DNA from: Utricularia gibba
Lineage: Eukaryota; Streptophyta; Magnoliopsida; Lamiales; Lentibulariaceae
Reading direction: 5' to 3'
DNA length: 20,294 nucleotides
NCBI GenBank assembly: GCA_002189035.1
Contig: NEEC01000296.1
Span: 1-20,294, forward strand
Shown here: in pieces, positions 1 through 17,686 of the stretch
Numbering within the stretch: the stretch's first letter is position 1
Layout: each line of letters begins with the position of its first letter
Program-made: the position numbers and the translations under genes
The notes under the pieces: generated by a model
What the model was told of the DNA's origin: nothing
Seen by the model: only the letters and a program-made list of their open reading frames with translations
The model's database searches: none

Positions 1-4
1 TCAC

Positions 5-68
5 GTGCACCCCACATGATTTTTTCAACAACTTACTTTATACTTGAGCAGGCGGTCTTTGGGTGCAC
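5..68. repeat. Short inverted repeat GTGCACCC...GGGTGCAC
   Basis: GTGCACCC at 5-12 is the exact reverse complement of GGGTGCAC at 61-68, with 48 bases between. The arrangement recurs in most A monomers and in B monomers with the GGGTGCAC form; other B copies read GGGGGCAC and lose the pairing. GTGCAC is itself a palindrome. The dyad could form a cruciform or bind a dimeric protein at two sites, but eight base pairs around a 48-base loop is weak evidence of structure. Confidence 0.45.
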
Positions 69-170
69 CTGGAACGGGACAAAGGTAAGGTTTGGCTTGC
101 ACCGAGAGTTAGTTGTAGTCCGGCAAATAAAGTGATGTATTTATTATCGTTCGGTTTTCGGGGGCTGCCT
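14..170 (+). repeat. Half-unit alpha of the monomer (example in copy 1)
   Basis: Phased on ACATG, the first half of the monomer is 157 bases and resembles the second half. Matching blocks, alpha against beta, are ACATGATTTTTTCAACAAC (14) with ACATGGTTTTTCAAGGAAC (171); GGCGG (51) with GGCGG (205); TCTTTGGG (56) with TCTCGCTGGG (214); CCTGG (68) with CTTGG (226); GAC (78) with GAC (236); GCT (95) with GCT (252); and TGATGTATTTATT (133) with TGATGCATTTGTT (291). The steady offset and shared order suggest descent from one ~157-base ancestor. This half carries nearly all the differences that separate classes A, B and C. Confidence 0.7.
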
Positions 171-220
171 ACATGGTTTTTCAAGGAACCGCTTCTCGTT
201 TTGTGGCGGCCAGTCTCGCT
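169..220 (+). repeat. Hyperconserved core tract of the monomer (example in copy 1)
   Basis: The stretch from CTACATGG through GTGGCGGCCAGTCTCGCT is nearly unchanged in all 65 complete copies, whatever their class. The exceptions are the C/A switch after CAAGGAAC and occasional one-base losses. By contrast, the region at roughly 45-130 of the monomer differs strongly between classes. Nearly all left/right class switches in mosaic monomers fall inside or beside this tract. Strong constraint by a bound protein, or frequent gene conversion here, would both give this pattern. Confidence 0.7.
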
Positions 221-328
221 GGGAACTTGGTCCTTGACCCCGATTCTGTATGCTCATGAGGTCAACTGGATGCAAATCGATTAAAAAAAATGATGCATTT
301 GTTTAAATTATGATGTCACGTGCACCCC
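171..328 (+). repeat. Half-unit beta of the monomer (example in copy 1)
   Basis: This is the second, 158-base half of the ancestral dimer, running from ACATGG through the AT-rich end and the TCACGTG junction to the next ACATG. It holds the most conserved part of the satellite (171-220 in this copy), an ATGCAAAT octamer at 269-276 and an eight-base A run at 283-290. Its match to the alpha half is strongest at both ends and weak in between. An exact identity figure would need alignment of the consensus halves. Confidence 0.68.
314..323. promoter_or_regulatory. Monomer-junction CACGTG (E-box/G-box type) motif, example between copies 1 and 2
   Basis: A CACGTG palindrome sits at every monomer start except the copy at 15847, so about 65 times in the window. 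The preceding bases are GATGT or GATAT, so the context always reads (G/A)TCACGTG, with the purine kept in both variants. Known bHLH and bHLH-Zip factors, plant bZIP G-box factors and budding-yeast Cbf1 bind CACGTG sites, Cbf1 preferring RTCACRTG. The sequence shows only the motif; binding is not demonstrated, and a fixed satellite sequence repeats any motif it happens to contain. Confidence 0.35.
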
Positions 329-625
329 ACATGATTTTTTAACAACTTACTTTATACTTGAGGAGGCGGTCTTTGGGTGCACTGGAACGGGACAAAGGTA
401 ATTTTGGCTTGCACCGAGAGTAGTTGTAGTGGCAAATAAAAGTGATGTATTTATTATCGTTCGGTTTTCGGGGGCTGCCTACATGGTTTTTCAAGGAACA
501 GCTTCTCGTTTTGTGGCGGCCAGTCTCGCTGGGAACTTGGTCCTTGACCCGATTCTGTATGGCTCATGAGGTCAACTGGATGCAAATCGATTAAAAAAAA
601 TGATGCATTTGTTTAAATTATGATG
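316..625 (+). repeat. Monomer 2, class A with AACAGCTT patch
   Basis: A left and right halves, but GAGGAGGCGG and AACAGCTT are B-like single sites in an otherwise A copy, consistent with short conversion patches. Confidence 0.85.
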
Positions 626-941
626 TCACGTGCACCCCACATGATTTTTTCAACAACTTACTTTATACTTGAGCAGGCGGTCTTTGGGTGCACCTGGAAC
701 GGGACAAAGGTAAGTTTGGCTTGCACCGAGAGTTAGTTGTAGTCCGGCAAATAAAGTGATGTATTTATTATCGTTCGGTTTTCGGGGGCTGCCTACATGG
801 TTTTTCAAGGAACCGCTTCTCGTTTTGTGGCGGCCAGTCTCGCTGGGAACTTGGTCCTTGACCCCGATTCTGTATGGCTCATGAGGTCAACTGGATGCAA
901 ATCGATTAAAAAAAATGATGCATTTGTTTAAAATTATGATG
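626..941 (+). repeat. Monomer 3, class A
   Basis: Class A throughout; at 316 bases it is the longest copy, with one extra A in TTTAAAATTATG. Confidence 0.9.
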
Positions 942-1251
942 TCACGTGCACCCCACATGATTTTTTCAACAACTTACTTTATACTTGAGCAGGCGGTCTT
1001 GGGTGCACTGGAACGGGAAAAGGTAAGTTTGGCTTGCACCGAGAGTTAGTTGTAGTCCGGCAAATAAAGTGATGTATTTATTATCGTTCGGTTTTCGGGG
1101 GCTGCCTACATGGTTTTTCAAGGAACCGCTTCTCGTTTTGTGGCGGCCAGTCTCGCTGGGAACTTGGTCCTTGACCCCGATTCTGTATGCTCATGAGGTC
1201 AACTGGATGCAAATCGATTAAAAAAATGATGCATTTGTTTAAATTATGATG
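942..1251 (+). repeat. Monomer 4, class A
   Basis: Class A with small losses (GGTGCACTGG, GGGAAAAGG) and TATGCTC in the tail. Confidence 0.9.
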
Positions 1252-1559
1252 TCACGTGCACCCCACATGATTTTTTTCAAAACTTACTTTATACTTGAGA
1301 AGGCGGTCTTTGGGGGCACTTGGAACCGGAAAAGGTAGCTTAGGCTTGCCCAAGTAAGTTGTAGTCCGGCAAATAAAGTGATGTATTTATTATCGTTCGG
1401 TTTTCGGGGCTGCCTACATGGTTTTTCAAGGAACCGCTTCTCGTTTTGTGGCGGCCAGTCTCGCTGGGAACTTGGTCCTTGACCCGATTCTGTATGGCTC
1501 ATGAGGTCAACTGGATGCAAATCGATTAAAAAAATGATGCATTTGTTTAAATTATGATG
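1252..1559 (+). repeat. Monomer 5, class B/A mosaic
   Basis: B sequence through CCCAAGTAAG, then A from TCCGGCAAATAAAG (about 1365) onward. The switch point is shared with copies at 6214, 9640, 15847 and 17997. Confidence 0.85.
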
Positions 1560-1868
1560 TCACGTGCACCCCACATGATTTTTTCAACAACTTACTTTAT
1601 ACTTGAGCAGGCGGTCTTGGGTGCACTGGAACGGGACAAAGGTAAGGTTTGGCTTGCACCGAGAGTTAGTTGTAGTCCGGCAAATAAAGTGATGTATTTA
1701 TTATCGTTCGTTTTTCGGGGGCTGCCTACATGGTTTTTCAAGGAACGCTTCTCGTTTTGTGGCGGCCAGTCTCGCTGGGAACTTGGTCCTTGACCGATTC
1801 TGTATGGCTCATGAGGTCAACTGGATGCAAATCGATTAAAAAAAGATGCATTTGTTTAAATTACGATG
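1560..1868 (+). repeat. Monomer 6, class A' (precedes C)
   Basis: A copy with G to T in the TTCGG tract and AACGCTT. It is the first member of cassette 1. Confidence 0.85.
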
Positions 1869-2163
1869 TCACGTGCACCCACATGATTTTTCAAAACTTT
1901 ACTTTATACTTGAGGAGGCGGTCTTGGGGCGGACAAAGGCTTAGGCTTGGCCGAAAGTAAGTTGTAGCCCGGCAAATAAAGTGATGTATTTATTATCGTT
2001 CGGTTTTCGGGGCTGCCTACATGGTTTTTCAAGGAACCGCTTCTCGTTTTGTGGCGGCCAGTCTCGCTGGGAACTTGGTCCTTGACCCGATTCTGTATGG
2101 CTCATGAGGTCAACTGGATGCAAATCGATTAAAAAAAATGATGCATTTGTTTAAATTATGATG
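1869..2163 (+). repeat. Monomer 7, class C/A, short
   Basis: At 295 bases this C copy lacks about 14 bases around GGGGCGGACAAAGG relative to the C copy at 4034. It has the A right half, and TTATCG rather than the usual C TTAACG. Confidence 0.82.
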
Positions 2164-2475
2164 TCACGTGCACCCCACATGATTTTTTTAACAACTACTT
2201 TATACATGAGGAGGCGGTCTTGGGGGCACTTGGAACCGGAAAAAGGTCAGCTTAGGCTTGGCCCAAAGTAAGTTGTAGCCCGGCAAAGAAAGTGATGTAT
2301 TTATTAACGTTCGGTTTTCGGTGTTGCCTACATGGTTTTTCAAGGAACAGCTTCTCGTTTTTGTGCGGCCAGTCTCGCTAGGAACTTGGTCCGGGCCCGC
2401 GATTCTTTATGGCTCATGAGGTCAACTGGATGCAAATCGATTAAAAAAAATGATGCATTTGTTTAAATTACGATG
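2164..2475 (+). repeat. Monomer 8, class B>A
   Basis: Full B signature (TCAGCTTAGGC, CAAAGAAAG, GTGTTGCC, CCGGGCCCGCG) until CTCATGAG, then the A tail GTCAACTGG. TTTGTGCGGCC carries a local indel pair. Confidence 0.87.
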
Positions 2476-2788
2476 TCACGTGCACCCCACATGATTTTTT
2501 CAACAACTTACTTTATACTTGAGCAGGCGGTCTTTGGGTGCACCTGGAACGGGACAAAGGTAAGGTTTGGCTTGCAGAGAGTTAGTTGTAGTCCGGCAAA
2601 TAAAGTGATGTATTTATTATCGTTCGGTTTTCGGGGGCTGCCTACATGGTTTTTCAAGGAACCGCTTCTCGTTTTGTGGCGGCCAGTCTCGCTGGGAACT
2701 TGGTCCTTGACCCCGATTCTGTATGGCTCATGAGGTCAACTGGATGCAAATCGATTAAAAAAATGATGCATTTGTTTAAATTATGATG
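2476..2788 (+). repeat. Monomer 9, class A
   Basis: Class A with CTTGCAGAGAGTT, missing bases of the usual CACCGAGAG. Confidence 0.9.
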
Positions 2789-3096
2789 TCACGTGCACCC
2801 CACATGATTTTTTCAACAACTTACTTTATACTTGAGCAGGCGGTCTTTGGGTGCACTGGAACGGGAAAAAGGTAAGGTTTGGCTTGCCCGAGAGTTAGTT
2901 GTAGTCCGGCAAATAAAGTGATGTATTTATTATCGTTCGGTTTTCGGGGTGCCTACATGGTTTTTCAAGGAACAGCTTCTCGTTTTGTGGCGGCCAGTCT
3001 CGCTGGAACTTGGTGGGCCCGCGATTCTTTATGGCTCATGAGGACAAAAGGATGCAAATCGATGAATACAATGTTGCATTTGTTTAAATTGCGATA
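2789..3096 (+). repeat. Monomer 10, class A/B mosaic
   Basis: A through GGGGTGCC, then B from AACAGCTT to the GATGAATACAATGTTGC tail. It shows the A/B switch inside the TACATGG core tract. Confidence 0.87.
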
Positions 3097-3410
3097 TCAC
3101 GTGCACCCCACATGATTTTTTCAACAACTTACTTTATACTTGAGCAGGCGGTCTTTGGTGCACCTGGAACGGGACAAAGGTAAGGTTTGGCTTGCACCGA
3201 GAGTTAGTTGTAGTCCGGCAAATAAAGTGATGTATTTATTATCGTTCGGTTTTCGGGGGCTGCCTACATGGTTTTTCAAGGAACCGCTTCTCGTTTTGTG
3301 GCGGCCAGTCTCGCTGGGAACTTGGTCCTTGACCCCGATTCTGTATGGCTCATGAGGTCAACTGGATGCAAATCGATTAAAAAAATGATGCATTTGTTTA
3401 AATTATGATG
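3097..3410 (+). repeat. Monomer 11, class A
   Basis: Class A, entered through a GCGATATCACG junction left by the preceding B tail; one G is lost in TTTGGTGCACC. Confidence 0.9.
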
Positions 3411-3720
3411 TCACGTGCACCCCACATGATTTTTTTCAACAACTTACTTTATACTTGAGCAGGCGGTCTTTGGGTGCACCTGGAACGGGACAAAGGTAAG
3501 GTTTGGCTTGCCGAGAGTTAGTTGTAGCCGGCAAATAAAGTGATGTATTTATTAACGTTCGGTTTTCGGGGGCTGCCTACATGGTTTTTCAAGGAACAGC
3601 TTCTCGTTTTGTGGCGGCCAGTCTCGCTGGGAACTTGGTCCTTGGCCCGATTCTGTATGGCTCATGAGGTCAAGGATGCAAATCGATGAAAAAAATGATG
3701 CATTTGTTTAAATTATGATG
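3411..3720 (+). repeat. Monomer 12, class A with B-like patches
   Basis: Mostly A, but TTAACG, AACAGCTT, CTTGGCCCG and CGATGAAAAAAATG are B-like sites mixed with A sites, more patchy than a single crossover would give. Confidence 0.8.
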
Positions 3721-4033
3721 TCACGTGCACCCCACATGATTTTTTCAACAACTTACTTTATACTTGAGCAGGCGGTCTTTGGGTGCACTTGGAACGGGAC
3801 AAAGGTAAGGTTTGGCTTGCACCGAGAGTTAGTTGTAGTCCGGCAAATAAAGTGATGTATTTATTATCGTTCGTTTTCGGGGGCTGCCTACATGGTTTTT
3901 CAAGGAACAGCTTCTCGTTTTGTGGCGGCCAGTCTCGCTGGGAACTTGGTCCTTGACCCGATTCTGTATGCTCATGAGGTCAACTGGATGCAAATCGATT
4001 AAAAAAAATGATGCATTTGTTTAAATTACGATG
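3721..4033 (+). repeat. Monomer 13, class A'
   Basis: A copy with CGTTCGTTTTCGG, AACAGCTT and TATGCTC; first member of cassette 2. Confidence 0.85.
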
Positions 4034-4337
4034 TCACGTGCACCCCACATGATTTTTCAAACACTTACTTTATACTTGAGGAGGCGGTCTTGGGGGCACG
4101 GAACGGACAAAAGTTAGGCTTGCCCGAAAGTTAAGTTGTAGCCCGGCAAATAAAGTGATGTATTTATTAACGTTCGGTTTTCGGGGCTGCCTACATGGTT
4201 TTTCAAGGAACCGCTTCTCGTTTTGTGGCGGCCAGTCTCGCTGGGAACTTGGTCCTTGACCCGATTCTGTATGGCTCATGAGGTCAACTGGATGCAAATC
4301 GATTAAAAAAAATGATGCATTTGTTTAAATTATGATG
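4034..4337 (+). repeat. Monomer 14, class C/A
   Basis: C left half (GGCACGGAACGGACAAAAG, TTAACG) joined to an A right half with AACCGCTT; 304 bases. Confidence 0.83.
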
Positions 4338-4648
4338 TCACGTGCACCCCACATGATTTTTTTAACAACTTACTTTATACTTGAGGAGGCGGTCTTGGGG
4401 GGCACTTGGAACCGGAAAAAGGTCAGCTTAGGCTTGGCCCAAAGTAAGTTGTAGCCCGGCAAAGAAAGTGATGTATTTATTAACGTTCGGTTTTCGGGCT
4501 GCCTACATGGTTTTTCAAGGAACAGCTTCTCGTTTTGTGGCGGCCAGTCTCGCTAGGAACTTGGTCCGGGCCCGATTCTTTATGGCTCATGAGGTCAACT
4601 GGATGCAAATCGATTAAAAAAAATGATGCATTTGTTTAAATTACGATG
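4338..4648 (+). repeat. Monomer 15, class B>A
   Basis: B through TTCTTTATGG, A tail after CTCATGAG. It corresponds to the copy at 2164 seven monomers earlier. Confidence 0.86.
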
Positions 4649-4963
4649 TCACGTGCACCCCACATGATTTTTTCAACAACTTACTTTATACTTGAGCAGG
4701 CGGTCTTTGGGTGCACCTGGAACGGGACAAAGGTAAGGTTTGGCTTGCACGAGAGTTAGTTGTAGTCCGGCAAAAAAAGTGATGTATTTATTATCGTTCG
4801 GTTTTCGGGGGCTGCCTACATGGTTTTTCAAGGAACCGCTTCTCGTTTTGTGGCGGCCAGTCTCGCTGGGAACTTGGTCCTTGACCCCGATTCTGTATGG
4901 CTCATGAGGTCAACTGGATGCAAATCGATTAAAAAAAATGATGCATTTGTTTAAATTATGATG
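4649..4963 (+). repeat. Monomer 16, class A
   Basis: Class A with CTTGCACGAGAG and CGGCAAAAAAAG in place of CGGCAAATAAAG. Confidence 0.89.
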
Positions 4964-5274
4964 TCACGTGCACCCCACATGATTTTTTCAACAACTTACT
5001 TTATACTTGAGCAGGCGGTCTTTGGGTGCACCTGGAACGGGACAAAGGTAAGGTTTGGCTTGCACCGAGAGTTAGTTGTAGTCCGGCAAATAAAGTGATG
5101 TATTTATTATCGTTCGGTTTTCGGGGCTGCCTACATGGTTTTTCAAGGAACGCTTCTCGTTTTGTGGCGGCCAGTCTCGCTGGAACTTGGTCCTTGGCCC
5201 CGATTCTTTATGGCTCATGAGGTCAACTGGATGCAAATCGATTAAAAAAATGATGCATTTGTTTAAATTAGATA
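4964..5274 (+). repeat. Monomer 17, class A with part-B right half
   Basis: A left half and AACGCTT, then CTTGGCCCCGATTCTTTATGG, which mixes A and B sites, then the A tail. It ends in TTAGATATCACG. Confidence 0.8.
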
Positions 5275-5589
5275 TCACGTGCACCCCACATGATTTTTTC
5301 AACAACTTACTTTATACTTGAGCAGGCGGTCTTTGGGTGCACTGGAACGGGACAAAGGTAAGGTTTGGCTTGCACCGAGAGTTAGTTGTAGTCCGGCAAA
5401 TAAAGTGATGTATTTATTATCGTTCGGTTTTCGGGGGCTGCCTACATGGTTTTTCAAGGAACCGCTTCTCGTTTTGTGGCGGCCAGTCTCGCTGGGAACT
5501 TGGTCCTTGACCCCGATTCTGTATGGCTCATGAGGTCAACTGGATGCAAATCGATTAAAAAAAATGATGCATTTGTTTAAATTATGATG
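5275..5589 (+). repeat. Monomer 18, class A
   Basis: Class A entered through a GATATCACG junction, as in the copy at 3097. Confidence 0.9.
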
Positions 5590-5901
5590 TCACGTGCACC
5601 CCACATGATTTTTTCAACAACTTACTTTATACTTGAGCAGGCGGTCTTTGGGTGCACTGGAACGGGACAAAGGTAAGGTTGGCTTGCCCGAGAGTTAGTT
5701 GTAGTCCGGCAAATAAAGTGATGTATTTATTATCGTTCGGTTTTCGGGGCTGCCTACATGGTTTTTCAAGGAACCGCTTCTCGTTTTGTGGCGGCCAGTC
5801 TCGCTGGGAACTTGGTCCTTGACCCCGATTCTGTATGGCTCATGAGGTCAACTGGATGCAAATCGATTAAAAAAAATGATGCATTTGTTTAAATTATGAT
5901 G
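5590..5901 (+). repeat. Monomer 19, class A
   Basis: Class A with GGTAAGGTTGGC and TTGCCCGAGAG small indels. Confidence 0.9.
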
Positions 5902-6213
5902 TCACGTGCACCCCACATGATTTTTTCAACAACTTACTTTATACTTGAGCAGGCGGTCTTTGGGTGCACCTGGAACGGGACAAAGGTAAGTTTGGCTTGC
6001 CCGAGAGTAAGTTGTAGTCCGGCAAATAAAGTGATGTATTTATTATCGTTCGGTTTTCGGGGGCTGCCTACATGGTTTTTCAAGGAACCGCTTCTCGTTT
6101 TGTGGCGGCCAGTCTCGCTGGAACTTGGTCCTTGACCCCGATTCTGTATGGCTCATGAGGTCAACTGGATGCAAATCGATTAAAAAAATGATGCATTTGT
6201 TTAAATTATGATG
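5902..6213 (+). repeat. Monomer 20, class A
   Basis: Class A; TTGCCCGAGAGTAAG has one B-like AGTAAG site. CTGGAACTTGG lacks a G. Confidence 0.89.
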
Positions 6214-6525
6214 TCACGTGCACCCCACATGATTTTTTCAACAACTTACTTTATACTTGAGAGGCGGTCTTGGGGGCACTTGGAACCGGAAAAAGGTCAG
6301 CTTAGGCTTGCCCAAAGTAAGTTGTAGTCCGGCAAATAAAGTGATGTATTTATTATCGTTCGGTTTTCGGGGGCTGCCTACATGGTTTTTCAAGGAACCG
6401 CTTCTCGTTTTGTGGCGGCCAGTCTCGCTGGGAACTTGGTCCTTGACCCCGATTCTGTATGGCTCATGAGGTCAACTGGATGCAAATCGATTAAAAAAAA
6501 TGATGCATTTGTTTAAATTATGATG
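6214..6525 (+). repeat. Monomer 21, class B/A mosaic
   Basis: B through CCCAAAGTAAGTTGTAG, then A from TCCGG (about 6328). Nearly the same mosaic as the copy at 9640, including GAGAGGCGG. Confidence 0.86.
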
Positions 6526-6837
6526 TCACGTGCACCCCACATGATTTTTTCAACAACTTACTTTATACTTGAGCAGGCGGTCTTTGGGTGCACCTGGAAC
6601 GGGACAAAGGTAAGGTTTGGCTTGCACGAGAGTTAGTTGTAGCCGGCAAATAAAGTGATGTATTTATTATCGTTCGGTTTTCGGGGGCTGCCTACATGGT
6701 TTTTCAAGGAACAGCTTCTCGTTTTGTGGCGGCCAGTCTCGCTAGGAACTTGGTCCTGGCCCCGATTCTTTATGGCTCATGAGGACAAAAGGATGCAAAT
6801 CGATGAATACAATGTTGCATTTGTTTAAATTGCGATA
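6526..6837 (+). repeat. Monomer 22, class A/B mosaic
   Basis: A until the core tract, B from AACAGCTT with GACAAAAGG and the GATGAATACAATGTTGC tail; the next junction is GCGATATC. Confidence 0.87.
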
Positions 6838-7152
6838 TCACGTGCACCCCACATGATTTTTTTCAACAACTTACTTTATACTTGAGCAGGCGGTCTTTGG
6901 GTGCACCTGGAACGGGACAAAGGTAAGGTTTGGCTTGCACCGAGAGTTAGTTGTAGTCCGGCAAATAAAGTGATGTATTTATTATCGTTCGTTTTCGGGG
7001 GCTGCCTACATGGTTTTTCAAGGAACAGCTTCTCGTTTTGTGGCGGCCAGTCTCGCTGGGAACTTGGTCCTTGACCCCGATTCTGTATGGCTCATGAGGT
7101 CAACGGATGCAAATCGATTAAAAAAAATGATGCATTTGTTTAAATTACGATG
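6838..7152 (+). repeat. Monomer 23, class A'
   Basis: A copy with CGTTCGTTTTCGG, AACAGCTT and GTCAACGGATG; first member of cassette 3. Confidence 0.85.
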
Positions 7153-7454
7153 TCACGTGCACCCCACATGATTTTTCAACTTTACTTTATACTTGAGGAG
7201 GCGGTCTTGGGGACTGGAACGGACAAAAGGTTAGGCTTGGGCCGAAAGTAAGTTGTAGCCCGGCAAATAAAGTGATGTATTTATTAACGTTCGGTTTTCG
7301 GGGCTGCCTACATGGTTTTTCAAGGAACCGCTTCTCGTTTTGTGGCGGCCAGTCTCGCTGGGAACTTGGTCCTTGACCCGATTCTGTATGGCTCATGAGG
7401 TCAACTGGATGCAAATCGATTAAAAAAAATGATGCATTTGTTTAAATTATGATG
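7153..7454 (+). repeat. Monomer 24, class C/A
   Basis: C left half with GGACTGGAACGGACAAAAGG and GGGCCGAAAG; A right half. 302 bases. Confidence 0.83.
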
Positions 7455-7764
7455 TCACGTGCACCCCACATGATTTTTTAACAACTTACTTTATACTTGA
7501 GGAGGCGGTCTTGGGGCACTTGGAACCGGAAAAAGGTCAGCTTAGGCTTGGCCCAAAGTAAGTTGTAGCCCGGCAAAAAAAGTGATGTATTTATTAACGT
7601 TCGGTTTTCGGTGTTGCCTACATGGTTTTTCAAGGAACCGCTTCTCGTTTTGTGGCGGCCAGTCTCGCTGGGAACTTGGTCCTTGACCCGATTCTGTATG
7701 GCTCATGAGGTCAACTGGATGCAAATCGATTAAAAAAAATGATGCATTTGTTTAAATTATGATG
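7455..7764 (+). repeat. Monomer 25, class B/A mosaic (switch in core tract)
   Basis: B through GTGTTGCC, then A from AACCGCTT. This is the reciprocal of the A/B mosaics, with the switch in the same TACATGG...GGAAC tract. Confidence 0.86.
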
Positions 7765-8074
7765 TCACGTGCACCCCACATGATTTTTTTAACAAATTAC
7801 TTTATACTGAGGAGGCGGTCTTTGGGGGCACTTGGAACCGGAAAAAGGTCAGCTTAGGCTTGGCCCAAAGTAAGTTGTAGCCCGGCAAAGAAAGTGATGT
7901 ATTTATTAACGTTCGGTTTTCGGGTTGCCTACATGGTTTTTCAAGGAACAGCTTCTCGTTTTGTGGCGGCCAGTCTCGCTGGAACTTGGTCCGGGCCCCG
8001 ATTCTTTATGGCTCATGAGGTCAACTGGATGCAAATCGATTAAAAAAAATGATGCATTTGTTTAAATTACGATG
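7765..8074 (+). repeat. Monomer 26, class B>A
   Basis: B through TTCTTTATGG with GGGTTGCC, then the A tail. It is a second consecutive B-left copy. Confidence 0.86.
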
Positions 8075-8387
8075 TCACGTGCACCCCACATGATTTTTTC
8101 AACAACTTACTTTATACTGAGCAGGCGGTCTTTGGGTGCACCTGGAACGGGACAAAGGTAAGGTTTGGCTTGCACGAGAGTTAGTTGTAGTCCGGCAAAT
8201 AAAGTGATGTATTTATTATCGTTCGGTTTTCGGGGCTGCCTACATGGTTTTTCAAGGAACCGCTTCTCGTTTTGTGGCGGCCAGTCTCGCTGGGAACTTG
8301 GTCCTTGACCCCGATTCTGTATGGCTCATGAGGTCAACTGGATGCAAATCGATTAAAAAAAATGATGCATTTGTTTAAATTATGATG
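8075..8387 (+). repeat. Monomer 27, class A
   Basis: Class A with TATACTGAGC and CTTGCACGAGAG one-base losses. Confidence 0.9.
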
Positions 8388-8701
8388 TCACGTGCACCCC
8401 ACATGATTTTTTCAACAACTTACTTTATACTTGAGAAGGCGGTCTTTGGGTGCACTTGGAACCGGAAAAAGATCAGCTTAGGCCTTGGCCCAAAGTAAGT
8501 TGTAGCCCGGCAAAGAAAGTGATGTATTTATTAACGTTCGGTTTTCGGTGTTGCCTACATGGTTTTTCAAGGAACAGCTTCTCGTTTTGTGGCGGCCAGT
8601 CTCGCTAGGAACTTGGTCCGGGCCCGCGATTCTTTATGGCTCATGAGGACAAAAGGATGCAAATCGATGAATACAATGTTGCATTTGTTTAAATTGCGAT
8701 A
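8388..8701 (+). repeat. Monomer 28, class B (complete B, AGATCAG subtype)
   Basis: B along its full length. The left half has the GGGTGCACTTGG and AAAAAGATCAGCTTAGGCC form, and the tail is GATGAATACAATGTTGC. It is one of the few copies with no A segment after the leader. Confidence 0.87.
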
Positions 8702-9015
8702 TCACGTGCACCCACATGATTTTTTCAACAACTTACTTTATACTTGAGCAGGCGGTCTTTGGGTGCACCTGGAACGGGACAAAGGTAAGGTTTGGCTTGC
8801 ACCGAGAGTTAGTTGTAGTCCGGCAAATAAAGTGATGTATTTATTATCGTTCGGTTTTCGGGGGCTGCCTACATGGTTTTTCAAGGAACCGCTTCTCGTT
8901 TTGTGGCGGCCAGTCTCGCTGGGAACTTGGTCCTTGACCCCGATTCTGTATGCTCATGAGGTCAACTGGATGCAAATCGATTAAAAAAAATGATGCATTT
9001 GTTTAAATTATGATG
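8702..9015 (+). repeat. Monomer 29, class A (near-copy of monomer 1)
   Basis: From 8761 the sequence repeats 61-340 almost exactly at an offset of 8,700 bases, including TATGCTC; the start lacks one C of GCACCCC. Confidence 0.9.
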
Positions 9016-9324
9016 TCACGTGCACCCCACATGATTTTTTCAACAACTTACTTTATACTTGAGAGGCGGTCTTTGGGTGCACTGGAACGGGACAAAGGTA
9101 AGTTTGGCTTGGCCGAAGTTAGTTGTAGTCCGGCAAATAAAGTGATGTATTTATTATCGTTCGGTTTTCGGGGCTGCCTACATGGTTTTTCAAGGAACCG
9201 CTTCTCGTTTTGTGGCGGCCAGTCTCGCTGGAACTTGGTCCTTGACCCCGATTCTGTATGGCTCATGAGGTCAACTGGATGCAAATCGATTAAAAAAAAT
9301 GATGCATTTGTTTAAATTATGATG
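9016..9324 (+). repeat. Monomer 30, class A
   Basis: Class A with GAGAGGCGG and a C-like GGCTTGGCCGAAG patch before GTTAG. Confidence 0.86.
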
Positions 9325-9639
9325 TCACGTGCACCCCACATGATTTTTTCAACAACTTACTTTATACTTGAGCAGGCGGTCTTTGGGTGCACCTGGAACG
9401 GGAAAAGGTAAGGTTTGGCTTGCACCGAGAGTTAGTTGTAGTCCGGCAAATAAAGTGATGTATTTATTATCGTTCGGTTTTCGGGGGCTGCCTACATGGT
9501 TTTTCAAGGAACCGCTTCTCGTTTTGTGGCGGCCAGTCTCGCTGGGAACTTGGTCCTTGACCCCGATTCTGTATGGCTCATGAGGTCAACTGGATGCAAA
9601 TCGATTAAAAAAAATGATGCATTTGTTTAAATTATGATG
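9325..9639 (+). repeat. Monomer 31, class A
   Basis: Near-consensus class A; GGGAAAAGG in place of GGGACAAAGG. Confidence 0.9.
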
Positions 9640-9950
9640 TCACGTGCACCCCACATGATTTTTTCAACAACTTACTTTATACTTGAGAGGCGGTCTTGGG
9701 GGGCACTTGGAACCGGAAAAAGGTCAGCTTAGGCTTGCCCAAAGTAAGTTGTAGTCCGGCAAATAAAGTGATGTATTTATTATCGTTCGGTTTTCGGGGC
9801 TGCCTACATGGTTTTTCAAGGAACCGCTTCTCGTTTTGTGGCGGCCAGTCTCGCTGGGAACTTGGTCCTTGACCCCGATTCTGTATGGCTCATGAGGTCA
9901 ACTGGATGCAAATCGATTAAAAAAATGATGCATTTGTTTAAATTATGATG
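9640..9950 (+). repeat. Monomer 32, class B/A mosaic
   Basis: B left, switching to A at TCCGG (about 9755), as in the copy at 6214. Confidence 0.86.
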
Positions 9951-10263
9951 TCACGTGCACCCCACATGATTTTTTCAACAACTTACTTTATACTTGAGCA
10001 GGCGGTCTTTGGGTGCACCTGGAACGGGACAAAGGTAAGGTTTGGCTTGCACGAGAGTTAGTTGTAGTCCGGCAAATAAAGTGATGTATTTATTATCGTT
10101 CGGTTTTCGGGGGCTGCCTACATGGTTTTTCAAGGAACCGCTTCTCGTTTTGTGGCGGCCAGTCTCGCTGGGAACTTGGTCCTTGACCCCGATTCTGTAT
10201 GGCTCATGAGGTCAACTGGATGCAAATCGATTAAAAAAATGATGCATTTGTTTAAATTAGATG
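9951..10263 (+). repeat. Monomer 33, class A
   Basis: Class A with CTTGCACGAGAG; ends TTAGATGTCACG, with a base lost before the junction. Confidence 0.9.
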
Positions 10264-10567
10264 TCACGTGCACCCCACATGATTTTTTAACAACTTACTT
10301 TATACTGAGGAGGCGGTCTTGGGGGCACTTGGAACCGGAAAAAGGTCAGCTTAGGCTTGCCCAAAGTAAGTTGTAGCCCGGCAAAGAAAGTGATGTATTT
10401 ATTAACGTTCGGTTTTCGGTGTTGCCTACATGGTTTTTCAAGGAACAGCTTCTCGTTTTGTGGCGGCCAGTCTCGCTAGGAACTTGGTCCCCCGATTCTT
10501 TATGGCTCATGAGGACAAAAGGATGCAAATCGATGAATACAATGTTGCATTTGTTTAAATTGCGATA
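10264..10567 (+). repeat. Monomer 34, class B
   Basis: B throughout, but GGTCCCCCGATTC lacks the GGGCCCG block (304 bases). The tail is GATGAATACAATGTTGC. Confidence 0.85.
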
Positions 10568-10879
10568 TCACGTGCACCCCACATGATTTTTTCAACAACT
10601 TACTTTATACTTGAGCAGGCGGTCTTTGGTGCACCTGGAACGGGACAAAGGTAAGGTTTGGCTTGCACCGAGAGTTAGTTGTAGTCCGGCAAATAAAGTG
10701 ATGTATTTATTATCGTTTTGTTTTCGGGGGCTGCCTACATGGTTTTCAAGGAACGCTTCTCGTTTTGTGGCGGCCAGTCTCGCTGGGAACTTGGTCCTTG
10801 ACCCCGATTCTGTATGCTCATGAGGTCAACTGGATGCAAATCGATTAAAAAAAATGATGCATTTGTTTAAATTACGATA
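10568..10879 (+). repeat. Monomer 35, class A'
   Basis: A copy with CGTTTTGTTTTCGG, GGTTTTCAAGG and AACGCTT; first member of cassette 4. Confidence 0.84.
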
Positions 10880-11174
10880 TCACGTGCACCCACATATTTT
10901 TTCAAACTCTTACTTTATACTTGAGGAGGGGTCTTGAACGGACAAAAGGCAACTTAGGCTTGGCCGAAAGTAAGTTGTAGCCCGGCAATAAAGTGATGTA
11001 TTTATTAACGTTCGGTTTTCGGGCTGCCTACATGGTTTTTCAAGGAACCGCTTCTCGTTTTGTGGCGGCCAGTCTCGCTGGGAACTTGGTCCTTGACCCC
11101 GATTCTGTATGGCTCATGAGGTCAACTGGATGCAAATCGATTAAAAAAATGATGCATTTGTTTAAATTATGATG
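10880..11174 (+). repeat. Monomer 36, class C/A, short
   Basis: C copy of 295 bases with CAAACTCTTAC and GGCAACTTAGG, lacking about ten bases (the GGGGGAAGAG of other C copies) before GAACGGAC. Its GATATC junction resembles the C copies at 17687 and 19868. Confidence 0.82.
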
Positions 11175-11486
11175 TCACGTGCACCCCACATGATTTTTTC
11201 AACAACTTACTTTATACTTGAGAGGCGGTCTTTGGGTGCACTTGGAACCGGAAAAAGATCAGCTTAGGCCTTGCCCAAAGTAAGTTGTAGCCCGGCAAAG
11301 AAAGTGATGTATTTATTAACGTTCGGTTTTCGGTGTTGCCTACATGGTTTTTCAAGGAACAGCTTCTCGTTTTGTGGCGGCCAGTCTCGCTAGGAACTTG
11401 GTCCGGGCCCGCGATTCTTTATGGCTCATGAGGTCAACTGGATGCAAATCGATTAAAAAAATGATGCATTTGTTTAAATTGCGATA
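11175..11486 (+). repeat. Monomer 37, class B>A (AGATCAG subtype)
   Basis: B left of the AGATCAG/AGGCC form with GTGTTGCC and CCGGGCCCGCG, then the A tail. It nonetheless ends with the B-type GCGATATC junction, so the A segment lies between B segments. Confidence 0.84.
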
Positions 11487-11799
11487 TCACGTGCACCCCA
11501 CATGATTTTTTCAACAACTTACTTTATACTTGAGCAGGCGGTCTTTGGGTGCACCTGGAACGGACAAAGGTAAGGTTTGGCTTGCCCGAAGTTAGTTGTA
11601 GTCCGGCAAATAAAGTGATGTATTTATTATCGTTCGGTTTTCGGGGGCTGCCTACATGGTTTTTCAAGGAACCGCTTCTCGTTTTGTGGCGGCCAGTCTC
11701 GCTGGGAACTTGGTCCTTGACCCCGATTCTGTATGGCTCATGAGGTCAACTGGATGCAAATCGATTAAAAAAAATGATGCATTTGTTTAAATTACGATG
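11487..11799 (+). repeat. Monomer 38, class A
   Basis: Class A with GAACGGACAAAGG and TTGCCCGAAGTTAG one-base changes. Confidence 0.89.
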
Positions 11800-12104
11800 T
11801 CACGTGCACCCCACATGATTTTTTAACAACTACTTTATACTGAGGAGGCGGTCTTGGGGGCACTTGGAACCGGAAAAAGGTCAGCTTAGGCTTGCCCAAA
11901 GTAAGTTGTAGCCCGGCAAATAAAGTGATGTATTTATTAACGTTCGGTTTTCGGGTTGCCTACATGGTTTTTCAAGGAACAGCTTCTCGTTTTGTGGCGC
12001 CAGTCTCGCTGGAACTTGGTCCGGGCCCCGATTCTTTATGGCTCATGAGGTCAACTGGATGCAAATCGATTAAAAAAAATGATGCATTTGTTTAAATTAC
12101 GATG
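11800..12104 (+). repeat. Monomer 39, class B>A
   Basis: B left with CAAATAAAG (A-like) inside and GGGTTGCC; GTGGCGCCAG loses a G. A tail. First member of the three-monomer duplication. Confidence 0.84.
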
Positions 12105-12409
12105 TCACGTGCACCCCACATGATTTTTTCAACAACTTACTTTATACTTGAGCAGCGGTCTTTGGGTGCACCTGGAACGGGACAAAGGTAAGTTTGGCTT
12201 GCAGAGTTAGTTGTAGTCCGGCAAAAAAGTGATGTATTTATTATCGTTCGGTTTTCGGGGGCTGCCTACATGGTTTTTCAAGGAACAGCTTCTCGTTTTG
12301 TGGCGGCCAGTCTCGCTAGGAACTTGGTCCGGGCCCGATTCTTTATGGCTCATGAGGTCAACTGGATGCAAATCGATTAAAAAATGTTGCATTTGTTTAA
12401 ATTATGATG
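12105..12409 (+). repeat. Monomer 40, class A/B>A mosaic
   Basis: A left with GAGCAGCGG and CGGCAAAAAAG, B from AACAGCTT to TTCTTTATGG, A-type GTCAACTGG, then a hybrid AAAAAATGTTGC tail. Confidence 0.83.
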
Positions 12410-12723
12410 TCACGTGCACCCCACATGATTTTTTCAACAACTTACTTTATACTTGAGCAGGCGGTCTTTGGGTGCACCTGGAACGGGACAAAGGTAAGTT
12501 TGGCTTGCACCGAGAGTTAGTTGTAGTCCGGCAAATAAAGTGATGTATTTATTATCGTTCGGTTTTCGGGGCTGCCTACATGGTTTTTCAAGGAACCGCT
12601 TCTCGTTTTGTGGCGGCCAGTCTCGCTGGGAACTTGGTCCTTGACCCCGATTCTGTATGGCTCATGAGGTCAACTGGATGCAAATCGATTAAAAAAAATG
12701 ATGCATTTGTTTAAATTACGATG
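12410..12723 (+). repeat. Monomer 41, class A
   Basis: Near-consensus class A with GGTAAGTTTGGC. Confidence 0.9.
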
Positions 12724-13034
12724 TCACGTGCACCCCACATGATTTTTTTAACAACATACTTTATACATGAGGAGGCGGTCTTGGGGGCACTTGGAACCGG
12801 AAAAAGGTCAGCTTAGGCTTGGCCCAAAGTAAGTTGTAGCCCGGCAAATAAAGTGATGTATTTATTAACGTTCGGTTTTCGGTGTTGCCTACATGGTTTT
12901 TCAAGGAACAGCTTCTCGTTTTGTGGCGGCCAGTCTCGCTAGGAACTTGGTCCGGGCCCGATTCTTTATGGCTCATGAGGTCAACTGGATGCAAATCGAT
13001 TAAAAAAAATGATCCATTTGTTTAAATTACGATG
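12724..13034 (+). repeat. Monomer 42, class B>A
   Basis: B left with CAAATAAAG and GTGTTGCC, as in the copy at 11800; A tail with TGATCCATTT. Confidence 0.85.
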
Positions 13035-13342
13035 TCACGTGCACCCCACATGATTTTTTCAACAACTTACTTTATACTTGAGCAGCGGTCTTTGGGTGCA
13101 CCTGGAACGGGACAAAGGTAAGTTTGGCTTGCATCGAGAGTTAGTTGTAGTCCGGCAAAAAAAGTGATGTATTTATTATCGTTCGGTTTTCGGGGCTGCC
13201 TACATGGTTTTTCAAGGAACAGCTTCTCGTTTTGTGGCGGCCAGTCTCGCTAGGAACTTGGTCCTGGGCCCGCGATTCTTTATGGCTCATGAGGACAAAA
13301 GGATGCAAATCGATGAATGATGCATTTGTTTAAATTATGATG
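13035..13342 (+). repeat. Monomer 43, class A/B mosaic
   Basis: A left with GAGCAGCGG and CTTGCATCGAGAG, B from AACAGCTT through GACAAAAGG, ending in a hybrid CGATGAATGATGC. Confidence 0.84.
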
Positions 13343-13655
13343 TCACGTGCACCCCACATGATTTTTTCAACAACTTACTTTATACTTGAGCAGGCGGTCT
13401 TTGGGTGCACCTGGAACGGGACAAAGGTAAGTTTGGCTTGCACCGAGAGTTAGTTGTAGTCCGGCAAATAAAGTGATGTATTTATTATCGTTCGGTTTTC
13501 GGGGCTGCCTACATGGTTTTTCAAGGAACCGCTTCTCGTTTTGTGGCGGCCAGTCTCGCTGGGAACTTGGTCCTTGACCCGATTCTGTATGGCTCATGAG
13601 GTCAACTGGATGCAAATCGATTAAAAAAAATGATGCATTTGTTTAAATTATGATG
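13343..13655 (+). repeat. Monomer 44, class A
   Basis: Near-consensus class A with GGTAAGTTTGGC. Confidence 0.9.
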
Positions 13656-13967
13656 TCACGTGCACCCCACATGATTTTTTAACAAAATACTTTATACTGA
13701 GGAGGCGGTCTTGGGGGGCACTTGGAACCGGAAAAAGGTCAGCTTAGGCCTTGGCCCAAAGTAAGTTGTAGCCCGGCAAAGAAAGTGATGTATTTATTAA
13801 CGTTCGGTTTTCGGTGTTGCCTACATGGTTTTTCAAGGAACAGCTTCTCGTTTTGTGGCGGCCAGTCTCGCTAGGAACTTGGTCCGGGCCCGCGATTCTT
13901 TATGGCTCATGAGGTCAACTGGATGCAAATCGATTAAAAAAAATGATCATTTGTTTAAATTACGATG
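13656..13967 (+). repeat. Monomer 45, class B>A
   Basis: B through CCGGGCCCGCG and TTCTTTATGG, A tail with TGATCATTT (one base lost). Confidence 0.86.
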
Positions 13968-14282
13968 TCACGTGCACCCCACATGATTTTTTCAACAACT
14001 TACTTTATACTTGAGCAGGCGGTCTTTGGGTGCACCTGGAACGGGACAAAGGTAAGGTTTGGCTTGCACCGAGAGTTAGTTGTAGTCCGGCAAAAAAGTG
14101 ATGTATTTATTATCGTTCGGTTTTCGGGGGCTGCCTACATGGTTTTTCAAGGAACCGCTTCTCGTTTTGTGGCGGCCAGTCTCGCTGGGAACTTGGTCCT
14201 TGACCCCGATTCTGTATGGCTCATGAGGTCAACTGGATGCAAATCGATTAAAAAAAATGATCCATTTGTTTAAATTATGATG
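13968..14282 (+). repeat. Monomer 46, class A
   Basis: Class A with CGGCAAAAAAG and TGATCCATTT. Confidence 0.9.
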
Positions 14283-14592
14283 TCACGTGCACCCCACATG
14301 ATTTTTTCAACAACTTACTTTATACTTGAGAAGGCGGTCTTTGGGTGCACTTGGAACCGGAAAAAGATCAGCTTAGGCCTTGCCCAAAGTAAGTTGTAGC
14401 CCGGCAAAGAAAGTGATGTATTTATTAACGTTCGGTTTTCGGGTTGCCTACATGGTTTTTCAAGGAACAGCTTCTCGTTTTGTGGCGGCCAGTCTCGCTA
14501 GGAACTTGGTCCGGCCCCGATTCTGTTATGGCTCATGAGGACAAAGGATGCAAATCGATGAATACAATGTTGCATTTGTTTAAATTGCGATA
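14283..14592 (+). repeat. Monomer 47, class B (AGATCAG subtype)
   Basis: B throughout; GGTCCGGCCCCG and CTGTTATGG depart slightly from the B right-half form. The tail is GATGAATACAATGTTGC. Confidence 0.85.
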
Positions 14593-14907
14593 TCACGTGC
14601 ACCCCACATGATTTTTTCAACAACTTACTTTATACTTGAGCAGGCGGTCTTTGGGTGCACCTGGAACGGGACAAAGGTAAGCTTTGGCTTGCACCGAGAG
14701 TTAGTTGTAGTCCGGCAAATAAAGTGATGTATTTATTATCGTTCGGTTTTCGGGGGCTGCCTACATGGTTTTTCAAGGAACAGCTTCTCGTTTTGTGGCG
14801 GCCAGTCTCGCTAGGAACTTGGTCCTGGGCCCGCGATTCTTTATGGCTCATGAGGACAAAAGGATGCAAATCGATGAATAAATGTTGCATTTGTTTAAAT
14901 TATGATG
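14593..14907 (+). repeat. Monomer 48, class A/B mosaic
   Basis: A left, B from AACAGCTT, tail GATGAATAAATGTTGC followed by an A-type TTATGATG junction. Confidence 0.86.
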
Positions 14908-15219
14908 TCACGTGCACCCCACATGATTTTTTCAACAACTTACTTTATACTTGAGCAGGCGGTCTTTGGGTGCACCTGGAACGGGACAAAGGTAAGTTTG
15001 GCTTGCACCGAGAGTTAGTTGTAGTCCGGCAAATAAAGTGATGTATTTATTATCGTTCGGTTTTCGGGGGCTGCCTACATGGTTTTTCAAGGAACCGCTT
15101 CTCGTTTTGTGGCGGCCAGTCTCGCTGGGAACTTGGTCCTTGACCCCGATTCTGTTCTCATGAGGTCAACTGGATGCAAATCGATTAAAAAAAATGATGC
15201 ATTTGTTTAAATTATGATG
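14908..15219 (+). repeat. Monomer 49, class A
   Basis: Class A with a three- to four-base loss, TTCTGTTCTCATG for TTCTGTATGGCTCATG. Confidence 0.89.
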
Positions 15220-15532
15220 TCACGTGCACCCCACATGATTTTTTCAACAACTTACTTTATACTTGAGCAGGCGGTCTTGGGTGCACCTGGAACGGGACAA
15301 AGGTAAGTTTGGCTTGCACCGAGAGTTAGTTGTAGTCCGGCAAATAAAGTGATGTATTTATTATCGTTCGGTTTTCGGGGCTGCCTACATGGTTTTTCAA
15401 GGAACCGCTTCTCGTTTTGTGGCGGCCAGTCTCGCTGGGAACTTGGTCCTTGACCCCGATTCTGTATGGCTCATGAGGTCAACTGGATGCAAATCGATTA
15501 AAAAAAATGATGCATTTGTTTAAATTATGATG
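15220..15532 (+). repeat. Monomer 50, class A
   Basis: Near-consensus class A with GGTAAGTTTGGC. Confidence 0.9.
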
Positions 15533-15846
15533 TCACGTGCACCCCACATGATTTTTTCAACAACTTACTTTATACTTGAGCAGGCGGTCTTTGGGTGCAC
15601 CTGGAACGGGACAAAGGTAAGGTTTGGCTTGCACCGAGAGTTAGTTGTAGTCCGGCAAATAAAGTGATGTATTTATTATCGTTCGGTTTTCGGGGGCTGC
15701 CTACATGGTTTTTCAAGGAACCGCTTCTCGTTTTGTGGCGGCCAGTCTCGCTGGGAACTTGGTCCTTGACCCCGATTCTGTATGCTCATGAGGTCAACTG
15801 GATGCAAATCGATTAAAAAAATGATGCATTTGTTTAAATTATGATG
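15533..15846 (+). repeat. Monomer 51, class A (near-copy of monomer 1)
   Basis: Matches copies 1 and 29 including TATGCTC; the A run is one base shorter. Confidence 0.9.
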
Positions 15847-16133
15847 TCACGTTGATTTTTTCAACAACTTACTTTATACTTGTCTTGGGGCACTTGGAAC
15901 CGGAAAAGGTCAGCTTAGGCCTTGGCCCAAAGTAAGTTGTAGTCCGGCAAATAAAGTGATGTATTTATTATCGTTCGGTTTTCGGGTGCCTACATGGTTT
16001 TTCAAGGAACCTTCTCGTTTTGTGGCGGCCAGTCTCGCTGGGAACTTGGTCCTTGACCCCGATTCTGTATGCTCATGAGGTCAACTGGATGCAAATCGAT
16101 TAAAAAAATGATGCATTTGTTTAAATTATGATG
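15847..16133 (+). repeat. Monomer 52, class B/A, double deletion
   Basis: The shortest copy (287 bases). TCACGTTGATTTTTT has lost ten bases, destroying CACGTG, and TACTTGTCTTGGGG has lost about nine bases at the GAGGAGGCGG site. It switches from B to A at TCCGG (about 15943); AACCTTCTCG lacks GC. Confidence 0.86.
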
Positions 16134-16443
16134 TCACGTGCACCCCACATGATTTTTTCAACAACTTACTTTATACTTGAGCAGGCGGTCTTGGGTGCAC
16201 TGGAACGGGACAAAGGTTTTGGCTTGCACCGAGAGTTAGTTGTAGTCCGGCAAATAAAGTGATGTATTTATTATCGTTCGGTTTTCGGGGGCTGCCTACA
16301 TGGTTTTTCAAGGAACCGCTTCTCGTTTTGTGGCGGCCAGTCTCGCTGGGAACTTGGTCCTTGACCCCGATTCTGTATGGCTCATGAGGTCAACTGGATG
16401 CAAATCGATTAAAAAAAATGATGCATTTGTTTAAATTATGATG
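16134..16443 (+). repeat. Monomer 53, class A
   Basis: Class A with ACAAAGGTTTTGGC, a four- to five-base loss that removes GTAAG. Confidence 0.89.
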
Positions 16444-16753
16444 TCACGTGCACCCCACATGATTTTTTTAACAACTTACTTTATACTTGAGGAGGCGGTC
16501 TTGGGGCACTGGAACCGGAAAAAGATCAGCTTAGGCCTTGGCCCAAAGTAAGTTGTAGCCCGGCAAAGAAAGTGATGTATTTATTAACGTTCGGTTTTCG
16601 TGTTGCCTACATGGTTTTTCAAGGAACAGCTTCTCGTTTTGTGGCGGCCAGTCTCGCTAGGAACTTGGTCCGGGCCCGCGATTCTTTATGGCTCATGAGG
16701 ACAAAAGGATGCAAATCGATGAATACAATGTTGCATTTGTTTAAATTGCGATA
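16444..16753 (+). repeat. Monomer 54, class B
   Basis: B throughout with TTTTAACAAC, AGATCAGCTTAGGCC and a shortened TTTTCGTGTTGCC. First member of the seven-monomer block, paired with the copy at 18621, which shares these features. Confidence 0.86.
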
Positions 16754-17067
16754 TCACGTGCACCCCACATGATTTTTTCAACAACTTACTTTATACTTGA
16801 GCAGGCGGTCTTTGGGTGCACCTGGAACGGGACAAAGGTAAGTTTGGCTTGCACCGAGAGTTAGTTGTAGTCCGGCAAATAAAGTGATGTATTTATTATC
16901 GTTCGGTTTTCGGGGGCTGCCTACATGGTTTTTCAAGGAACCGCTTCTCGTTTTGTGGCGGCCAGTCTCGCTGGGAACTTGGTCCTTGACCCCGATTCTG
17001 TATGCTCATGAGGTCAACTGGATGCAAATCGATTAAAAAAAATGATGCATTTGTTTAAATTATGATG
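16754..17067 (+). repeat. Monomer 55, class A
   Basis: Class A with TATGCTC; second member of the seven-monomer block, paired with 18929. Confidence 0.9.
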
Positions 17068-17378
17068 TCACGTGCACCCCACATGATTTTTTCAACAACT
17101 TACTTTATACTTGAGCAGGCGGTCTTTGGGTGCACCTGGAACGGGACAAAGGTAAGGTTTGGCTTGCATCGAGAGTTAGTTGTAGTCCGGCAAATAAAGT
17201 GATGTATTTATTATCGTTCGGTTTTCGGGGGCTGCCTACATGGTTTTTCAAAACAGCTTCTCGTTTTGTGGCGGCCAGTCTCGCTGAACTTGGTCTGGGC
17301 CCGCGATTCTTTATGGCTCATGAGGACAAAAGGATGCAAATCGATGAATACAATGTTGCATTTGTTTAAATTGCGATA
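17068..17378 (+). repeat. Monomer 56, class A/B mosaic
   Basis: A left with CTTGCATCGAGAG, B from AAAACAGCTT to the GATGAATACAATGTTGC tail. Paired with 19243. Confidence 0.86.
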
Positions 17379-17686
17379 TCACGTGCACCCCACATGATTT
17401 TTTCAACAACTTACTTTATACTTGAGCAGGCGGTCTTTGGGCACCTGGAACGGGACAAAGGTAAGGTTTGGCTTGCACCGAGAGTTAGTTGTAGTCCGCA
17501 AATAAAGTGATGTATTTATTATCGTTCGTTTTCGGGGGCTGCCTACATGGTTTTCAAGGAACGCTTCTCGTTTTGTGGCGGCCAGTCTCGCTGGGAACTT
17601 GGTCCTTGACCCCGATTCTGTATTGCTCATGAGGTCAACGGATGCAAATGATTAAAAAAAATGATGCATTTGTTTAAATTATGATA
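17379..17686 (+). repeat. Monomer 57, class A'
   Basis: A copy with CGTTCGTTTTCGG, GGTTTTCAAGG, AACGCTT, TATTGCTC and CAAATGATT; paired with 19557. Confidence 0.85.

What the first reader, a model, noticed from the sequence alone, without database searches (positions are those of the whole stretch)
14..328. The monomer is itself an ancient dimer of ~157-base half-units
Homologous blocks recur in the same order at a steady 157-158 base offset. ACATGATTTTTTCAACAAC matches ACATGGTTTTTCAAGGAAC, and GGCGG, TCT...TGGG, CTGG/CTTGG, GAC, GGCT and TGATGTATTTATT/TGATGCATTTGTT follow. The half-unit is close to nucleosomal size, a common starting size for satellites. The B left half, with CTTGG where A has CCTGG, is in places closer to the right half.
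Basis: seen in the sequence. Interest (0 to 1): 0.72.

Follow-up and report, generated by a model that had tools for sequence, protein, structure and literature searches.

The report
Bladderwort satellite built from ancient dimer
The window is an array of a 314-base repeat whose two halves are old copies of one ~157-base unit; the repeat belongs to a large satellite family, possibly centromeric, in what is very probably a bladderwort whose centromeres were reported to lack satellites.

Summary
The window is one ~313-base tandem satellite. Each monomer splits at ACATG into halves of 157 and ~159 bases, 50–58% identical in all 11 subfamily consensuses, z 6.8–8.9 over dinucleotide shuffles of a fitted alignment; 10 of 11 need only one to four gap columns. 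The likeness survives removal of the 35 most conserved columns. Profiles of left halves find right halves and the reverse. On a tree of 22 halves, left and right separate with 100/100 support, so one duplication preceded the sampled subfamilies. In 17 stretches, 867 of 867 scored neighbouring halves alternate: the dimer is now the copied unit. No ~157-base array was seen in the stretches scanned.
The cox1 gene has the CC mutation of Utricularia; assembly and contig sizes suggest U. gibba. One satellite type exceeds 1.8 Mb, forms contig-specific higher-order repeats and ends 5 of 15 large contigs examined, one running from telomere to satellite. A paper speaks of absence of satellite repeats in putative U. 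gibba centromeres (PMC8333044). A centromeric role is likely but untested. The claim that the CTTGG class is closer to the right half is not supported.

The parts
1..20256 (+). Tandem array of a ~313-base satellite, about 65 copies, all in one orientation; half-unit hits continue to the window's end
   Evidence: 65.3 copies, 91% matches; 131 half-unit hits, all on the + strand
14..170 (+). Left half-unit of the first monomer, 157 bases, begins ACATGATTTTT
   Evidence: read; class alignment and profile
171..328 (+). Right half-unit of the first monomer, 158 bases, begins ACATGGTTTTT and ends TCACGTGCACCCC
   Evidence: read; class alignment and profile
14..328 (+). One dimer: the unit that is copied and homogenised today
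   Evidence: 129 of 129 scored neighbouring halves alternate in the window

Best explanation
The 314-base monomer descends from a ~157-base unit that was duplicated head to tail once, before the satellite spread into its present subfamilies. Shown: the halves are alike beyond chance along their length; their split is older than the 11 subfamilies sampled; near-complete halves alternate without exception where scored, so copying acts on the whole dimer; on some contigs dimers form higher-order repeats (2 dimers on C7, 7 on C8). Inferred: the spread was by unequal crossing-over and gene conversion, and the family is the centromere-associated satellite of many chromosomes of Utricularia gibba (one dimer is about two nucleosomes long), where it would offer long uniform arrays for centromeric nucleosomes. 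I put the dimer origin at about 0.97, the organism at about 0.93 and the centromere role at about 0.6.
For: Half homology. Without the 35 columns conserved on both sides the halves still match at 41-52%, z 3.9-6.6, at most 1 of 2000 column shuffles as good, above every slid register in all 11 subfamilies. One duplication before radiation: left|right split 100/100, branch 0.42; A-E plus I (99.7/100 left, 97.2/97 right), F+G (99.8/100, 98.8/99), F+G+J (89/93, 89/94) and F+G+J+Hh (88/86, 88/89) recur on both sides. The dimer as unit: 867 of 867. Higher-order repeats: lag-7 divergence 0.011 against a mean of 0.078 in L007 of C8; lag-2 0.020-0.026 in L009 and L003 of C7. Placement: of 15 contigs of 0.38 Mb or more with both ends read, 5 have satellite, at 7 of 30 ends; 11 of 30 ends are telomeric, none both; C213 runs from telomere to satellite. 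A copia-type gag fragment (PF14223) lies inside satellite on C477 and occurs on C15, C39 and C513, which begin with satellite; other copies cluster on C2, C3 and C4 (best 40 of 209 candidates only).
Against: No free ~157-base array was seen, so the ancestral unit is inferred. The nulls keep an alignment that MAFFT had fitted, so their z-values are somewhat generous. Inside A-E the left and right parts of the tree disagree (left: B with C, A with D and E; right: B with E, A with D), as exchange between classes would give, and the nodes placing K are weak (26.1/59 and 45.5/68). Partial-unit breaks exist outside the scored pairs: a 406-base period in L070, fragments in L075 and the irregular part of C7. 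No CENH3 ChIP or FISH; no CENP-B box beyond chance; no 10-base A/T periodicity. Ten of the 15 large contigs show no satellite at either end, and the 15 were not a random sample (they came from cox1 and copia hits). The copia fragment in the satellite looks like one insertion copied with the array, so it is weak evidence for place.
Confidence: 0.9

Rival explanations
1. The halves are not related by descent; both were shaped by selection towards the same motifs (for example for nucleosome placing or a binding protein), so they look alike at a fixed offset.
For: The left-right agreement is strongest in the most conserved columns (0.80 in 35 columns against 0.37 in the 77 variable ones), which selection could also produce; 314 is about two nucleosomes.
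Against: The alignment is collinear with one to four gap columns in 10 of 11 subfamilies (14 in K, which lost bases in its right half); the likeness remains without the 35 conserved columns; block shuffles fail; no 10-base periodicity.
Confidence: 0.03
2. The satellite is subtelomeric, knob-like or other non-centromeric heterochromatin, with the same dimer history.
For: No centromere assay exists here; 12 of the 30 large-contig ends read are neither satellite nor telomere, so place is known for few arrays.
Against: 0 of 30 ends carry both satellite and telomere repeats in the 300-600 bases read, and C213 has them at opposite ends 3.7 Mb apart; C460 (0.88 Mb) and C510 (0.38 Mb) have satellite at both ends.
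Confidence: 0.3
3. Small satellite contigs are contamination by another organism.
For: Apart from C477 (193 kb), the satellite contigs measured are 13-67 kb long, and the 14 of them sampled by a 300-base start begin with satellite.
Against: The satellite is joined to Mb-sized contigs, one with a plant-type telomere, and the copia fragment inside it is 96-98% identical to near-full copies on C1-C4.
Confidence: 0.02

Closest known systems
Human alpha satellite (higher-order repeats of diverged monomers, in layers)
   Same: Diverged units inside nearly identical higher-order repeats on some contigs, different subfamilies on different contigs; the layered organisation of human arrays is described in PMC12321929 (passages seen).
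   Different: Here the basic unit is already a fixed dimer with 50-58% identical halves, in a plant; no CENP-B box beyond chance; no sequence relation was tested.
161-bp satellite Gn7c161 of Genlisea nigrocaulis, the sister genus (PMC4542322, passages seen)
   Same: Most abundant tandem repeat, reported as centromere-associated there, nearly the length of the half-unit here.
Dimeric satellites in general (recalled, not from a call)
   Same: A monomer made of two related halves, with the dimer as unit of spread.
   Different: Nothing in kind.

Membership tests
Satellite whose monomer is an ancient dimer | Two halves alike beyond chance, in register | tested here: met
Satellite whose monomer is an ancient dimer | The split between halves is older than the spread of subfamilies | tested here: met
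   100/100 left|right split on the tree of 22 halves
Satellite whose monomer is an ancient dimer | A free monomeric form survives somewhere | tested here: inconclusive
   No period near 157 in the stretches given to the tandem-repeat finder; the genome could not be scanned whole and no relatives are held
Higher-order-repeat satellite | Periodic identity of blocks of several monomers | tested here: met
   C8 (L007) lag 7 divergence 0.011 against mean 0.078; C7 lag 2 at 0.020-0.026, with lag 13 lower still in L003 (0.009, 7 pairs); the window itself shows only a faint lag-7 signal, 0.044 against 0.051, and L002 none clear
Centromeric satellite | Binds the centromeric histone CENH3 | not testable with these tools
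   needs ChIP
Centromeric satellite | Lies at inner, non-telomeric contig ends | tested here: inconclusive
   7 of 30 ends satellite, 11 of 30 telomeric, 0 both, but not a random sample
CENP-B-box satellite | 17-base CENP-B box (motif recalled) | tested here: not met
   best 6-7 of 9 core positions, reached by 53-100 of 100 shuffles in the 11 subfamilies
Satellite derived from a known structured RNA such as 5S rRNA | Match to an Rfam family | tested here: not met
   no match up to E 1 in window 1-1300
Genlisea 161-bp centromere satellite | Sequence similarity | tested here: inconclusive
   primers only, no excess over shuffles

The most novel reading that the evidence does not exclude
Utricularia gibba has two kinds of centromere in one 100-Mb genome: a few chromosomes, the ones that assembled completely, have retrotransposon-rich centromeres without satellite, while the others have long layered higher-order arrays of this dimeric satellite, whose assembly failed. 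The published statement about absence of satellite repeats at putative centromeres would then be a result of which chromosomes could be assembled.
Probability: 0.4. Interest if true: 0.72.

Novelty: new member of a known kind. Interest (0 to 1): 0.5.

Why it matters
The dimer origin itself is a normal chapter of satellite evolution, here unusually well placed in time relative to the subfamilies: 157 to 314 to higher-order repeat. It matters more for the organism: a plant studied as a minimal genome, whose putative centromeres were described as without satellite repeats, holds at least about 1.8 Mb (about 2% of the assembly, one monomer per exact 20-mer) of one satellite type and an unmeasured amount of its sister types. 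That makes the centromeres of this species testable with one FISH probe per subfamily.

Tried and rejected
No relation was found to Rfam families (window 1-1300), to plasmid records, to ten primers of Genlisea repeats or to the CENP-B box. A yeast CDEI-like RTCACRTG is complete in classes B, C, D, E and I but not in A, F, G, Hh, J or K, so it is not a conserved part. A/T periodicity of 10 bases: none above shuffles. Half-register jumps: the irregular part of C7 (L008) looked like them at first (two pairs of right-half 20-mers there lie only 170-171 bases apart), but its scored near-complete neighbours all alternate (35 of 35); the stretch holds deletions and fragments and may be low-quality sequence. 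Three 10-kb samples from the copia-rich places of C2, C3 and C4 hold no satellite by profile search to E 1, like their shuffled controls. Ten paper searches: in the listings and passages I saw, no paper describes this satellite; the U. gibba long-read genome paper (DOI recalled) is not held, so a description there cannot be excluded.

The claim that C1-C6 hold no exact copy of the 20-mer rests on the listing starting at C7 and appearing to run in contig order; that 20-mer belongs to classes A-E, and not to all of their copies. Rows dropped: one search left out the one interval over 400 bases (63 of 64 kept); one search kept 230 monomers that were complete by its rules and found five classes of 10 or more plus one singleton, which I left aside; one search scored only neighbours that are each about 110 bases or longer and lie within 12 bases of each other (867 pairs; 918 such halves). 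The consensuses of J and K rest on 3 and 5 monomers. In one search class E was split at the wrong ACATGG, so its row there is void; and later use the corrected split.

Full report
What is there. The whole 20,294-base window is one tandem satellite with a period of ~313 bases, 65.3 copies at 91% matches, all in one orientation. It is G000:C59:1-20294 of a 100.09-Mb assembly in 516 contigs. The first dimer lies at 14-328: left half 14-170, right half 171-328 (read).

The observation. Splitting consensuses at ACATG and aligning left to right gives global scores of 98.5 and 103.5 for the two main classes, against shuffle means near 62; 0 of 2000 dinucleotide shuffles reach them; by local alignment the same halves give p 0.0075 and 0.0015. 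A third group, one monomer, gave p 0.011 globally and 0.49 locally. Shuffling only within blocks of 10-30 bases, which keeps any phased base composition, lets at most 1 of 2000 reach the score. The offset is specific: diagonals at 157 and 159 have 19 window matches each, the others at most 2. With five cleaner class consensuses the halves match at 79-84 of 155-157 positions with two to four gap columns (z 7.3-8.0; this null keeps an alignment that MAFFT had fitted, so it is somewhat generous), and without any gap rotation by one base gives 60-71 matches against 52-56 at best elsewhere.

Which organism. The mitochondrial cox1 (C515) is read in the standard code around a ~965-base insert and carries the residues CC at the site in question (LLLLCCSALVEV; that the usual letters there are LS is from the paper, their position in this stretch from recall). 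[quoted passage not shown] Telomere repeats are CCCTAAA. C451 is 6,822,880 bases long; PMC8333044 mentions a Unitig_8 of 6.8 Mb in U. gibba (passages seen). I conclude Utricularia gibba, long-read assembly, at about 0.93; no named sequence was compared.

A family of dimers. Exact copies of one 20-base stretch of the right half number 5,900 (2,752 + 3,148; reversed control 0), about 1.8 Mb of this type if each stands for one monomer. In 230 complete monomers from eight stretches there are five classes, A-E, and a singleton. The satellite-bearing ends of large contigs gave six further subfamilies F, G, Hh, I, J, K, whose near-complete halves are 64-87% identical to the nearest of the first five. 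First-look candidates for two of them were 1,559 (K) and 2,012 (J), of which only 40 and 37 were scored.

Left and right are old paralogues. In each of the 11 subfamilies left and right halves are 50-58% identical (77-91 of 143-157 positions; z 6.8-8.9, fitted alignment), with one to four gap columns in ten and 14 in K. Mean differences are 0.22 among left halves, 0.24 among right halves, 0.48 between left and right. The maximum-likelihood tree of 22 halves splits left from right with 100/100 support and a branch of 0.42. On both sides A-E group with I (99.7/100 left, 97.2/97 right) and F and G with J and then Hh (86-94 by bootstrap); K is nearest the split, but its nodes are weak (26.1/59 left, 45.5/68 right). 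Inside A-E the two sides disagree (B with C and A with D and E on the left; B with E and A with D on the right), as later exchange between classes would give. Columns nearly invariant on both sides agree between left and right at 0.80 (35 columns), middling ones 0.55 (44), variable ones 0.37 (77). Without those 35 columns the halves still match at 41-52%, z 3.9-6.6, above every slid register, with at most 1 of 2000 shuffles as good. A profile from left halves finds all 11 right halves (E 2e-7 to 0.0014) and one from right halves finds all 11 left halves (E 1.5e-13 to 4e-5); 15 of the 22 matches span 130 or more positions in register, the others 44-123 (E-values for a very small set, filters off). 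In 17 stretches, 867 of 867 scored neighbouring pairs of near-complete halves alternate left-right. Partial-unit breaks do occur: a 406-base period in L070, fragments in L075 and in the irregular part of C7. So a single head-to-tail duplication came before the spread, and the dimer has since been the unit of copying.

A third level. On some contigs the dimers form higher-order repeats: alternating C and D dimers (about 628 bases) on C7, though in L003 lag 13 is lower still (0.009, 7 pairs), and a 7-dimer repeat on C8 (L007: divergence 0.011 at lag 7, 0.012 at lags 14 and 21, mean 0.078); L006 of the same contig is less regular, L001 has its minimum at lag 5 (0.020 against 0.036), L002 shows no clear one and the window only a faint lag-7 signal. 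On C402 the K type sits in a ~2.33-kb repeat with 62-base repeats between. On C477 a 1,174-base piece of copia-type gag (PF14223) is carried inside the array; the copies listed there are 3.1-5.3 kb apart within their groups.

Where it lies. Of 15 contigs of at least 0.38 Mb whose two ends were read (300-600 bases each), satellite is at 7 of 30 ends (C213 end, C402 end, C414 start, both ends of C460 and C510), telomere repeats at 11 of 30, never both. C213 runs from telomere to satellite over 3.7 Mb. C414 has only about 130 bases of it. C3 and C4 have telomeres at both ends. The copia element's scored copies (40 of 209 candidates) include clusters at 2.83-2.92 Mb on C2, 4.63-4.71 Mb on C3 and 1.98-2.05 Mb on C4, which I take as probable centromere regions; a 10-kb sample of each holds no satellite. 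The contigs were chosen because cox1-like or copia hits lay on them, so the fractions are not estimates for the genome.

How it probably works. Shown: duplication, co-inheritance, dimer-level copying, higher-order repeats on some contigs. Inferred: unequal exchange and conversion as the means; a centromeric role, from inner position, abundance, layering and the two-nucleosome length. The review PMC12321929 (passages seen) gives 100-400 bases, about one or two nucleosomes, as the most frequent size of centromeric satellites. Against: no CENP-B box, no 10-base periodicity, no assay.

What is known. PMC8333044 (passages seen) says the low lncRNA density in putative centromeric regions of U. [quoted passage not shown] The present data show a major satellite in what is very probably the same assembly, in the cases seen mostly on small contigs. 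Whether the genome paper described it I could not see. In the sister genus, a 161-base repeat is reported as centromere-associated in Genlisea nigrocaulis (PMC4542322, passages seen); its primers show no likeness to this satellite.

Verdict. As a kind it is known; the organism and the record from half-unit to higher-order repeat give it moderate interest.

Noticed in passing
G000:C477 (L010:2844-4017 and 7232-8406): A 1,174-base copia-type gag fragment is embedded in the satellite and amplified with it; 99-100% identical pieces occur on C15, C39 and C513.
   Followed up: partly
G000:C2 2.83-2.92 Mb, C3 4.63-4.71 Mb, C4 1.98-2.05 Mb: Scored copies of the same copia element (4, 3 and 6) are clustered at one place on each of these large contigs, probable centromere regions, without satellite in the 10-kb samples read.
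   Followed up: partly
L075 (end of G000:C402): Diverged satellite type K lies in a ~2.33-kb higher-order repeat together with arrays of ~62-base repeats; blocks 98-99% identical occur on many small contigs.
   Followed up: partly
L008 (G000:C7:15501-25500): Several kb of broken, irregular half-units inside an otherwise regular array, perhaps low-quality consensus sequence.
   Followed up: partly
G000:C515 (L005): cox1 of this mitochondrion holds a ~965-base insert that lies in an open frame of 562 residues with the first exon; probably the group I intron known from other flowering plants (recalled).
   Followed up: no
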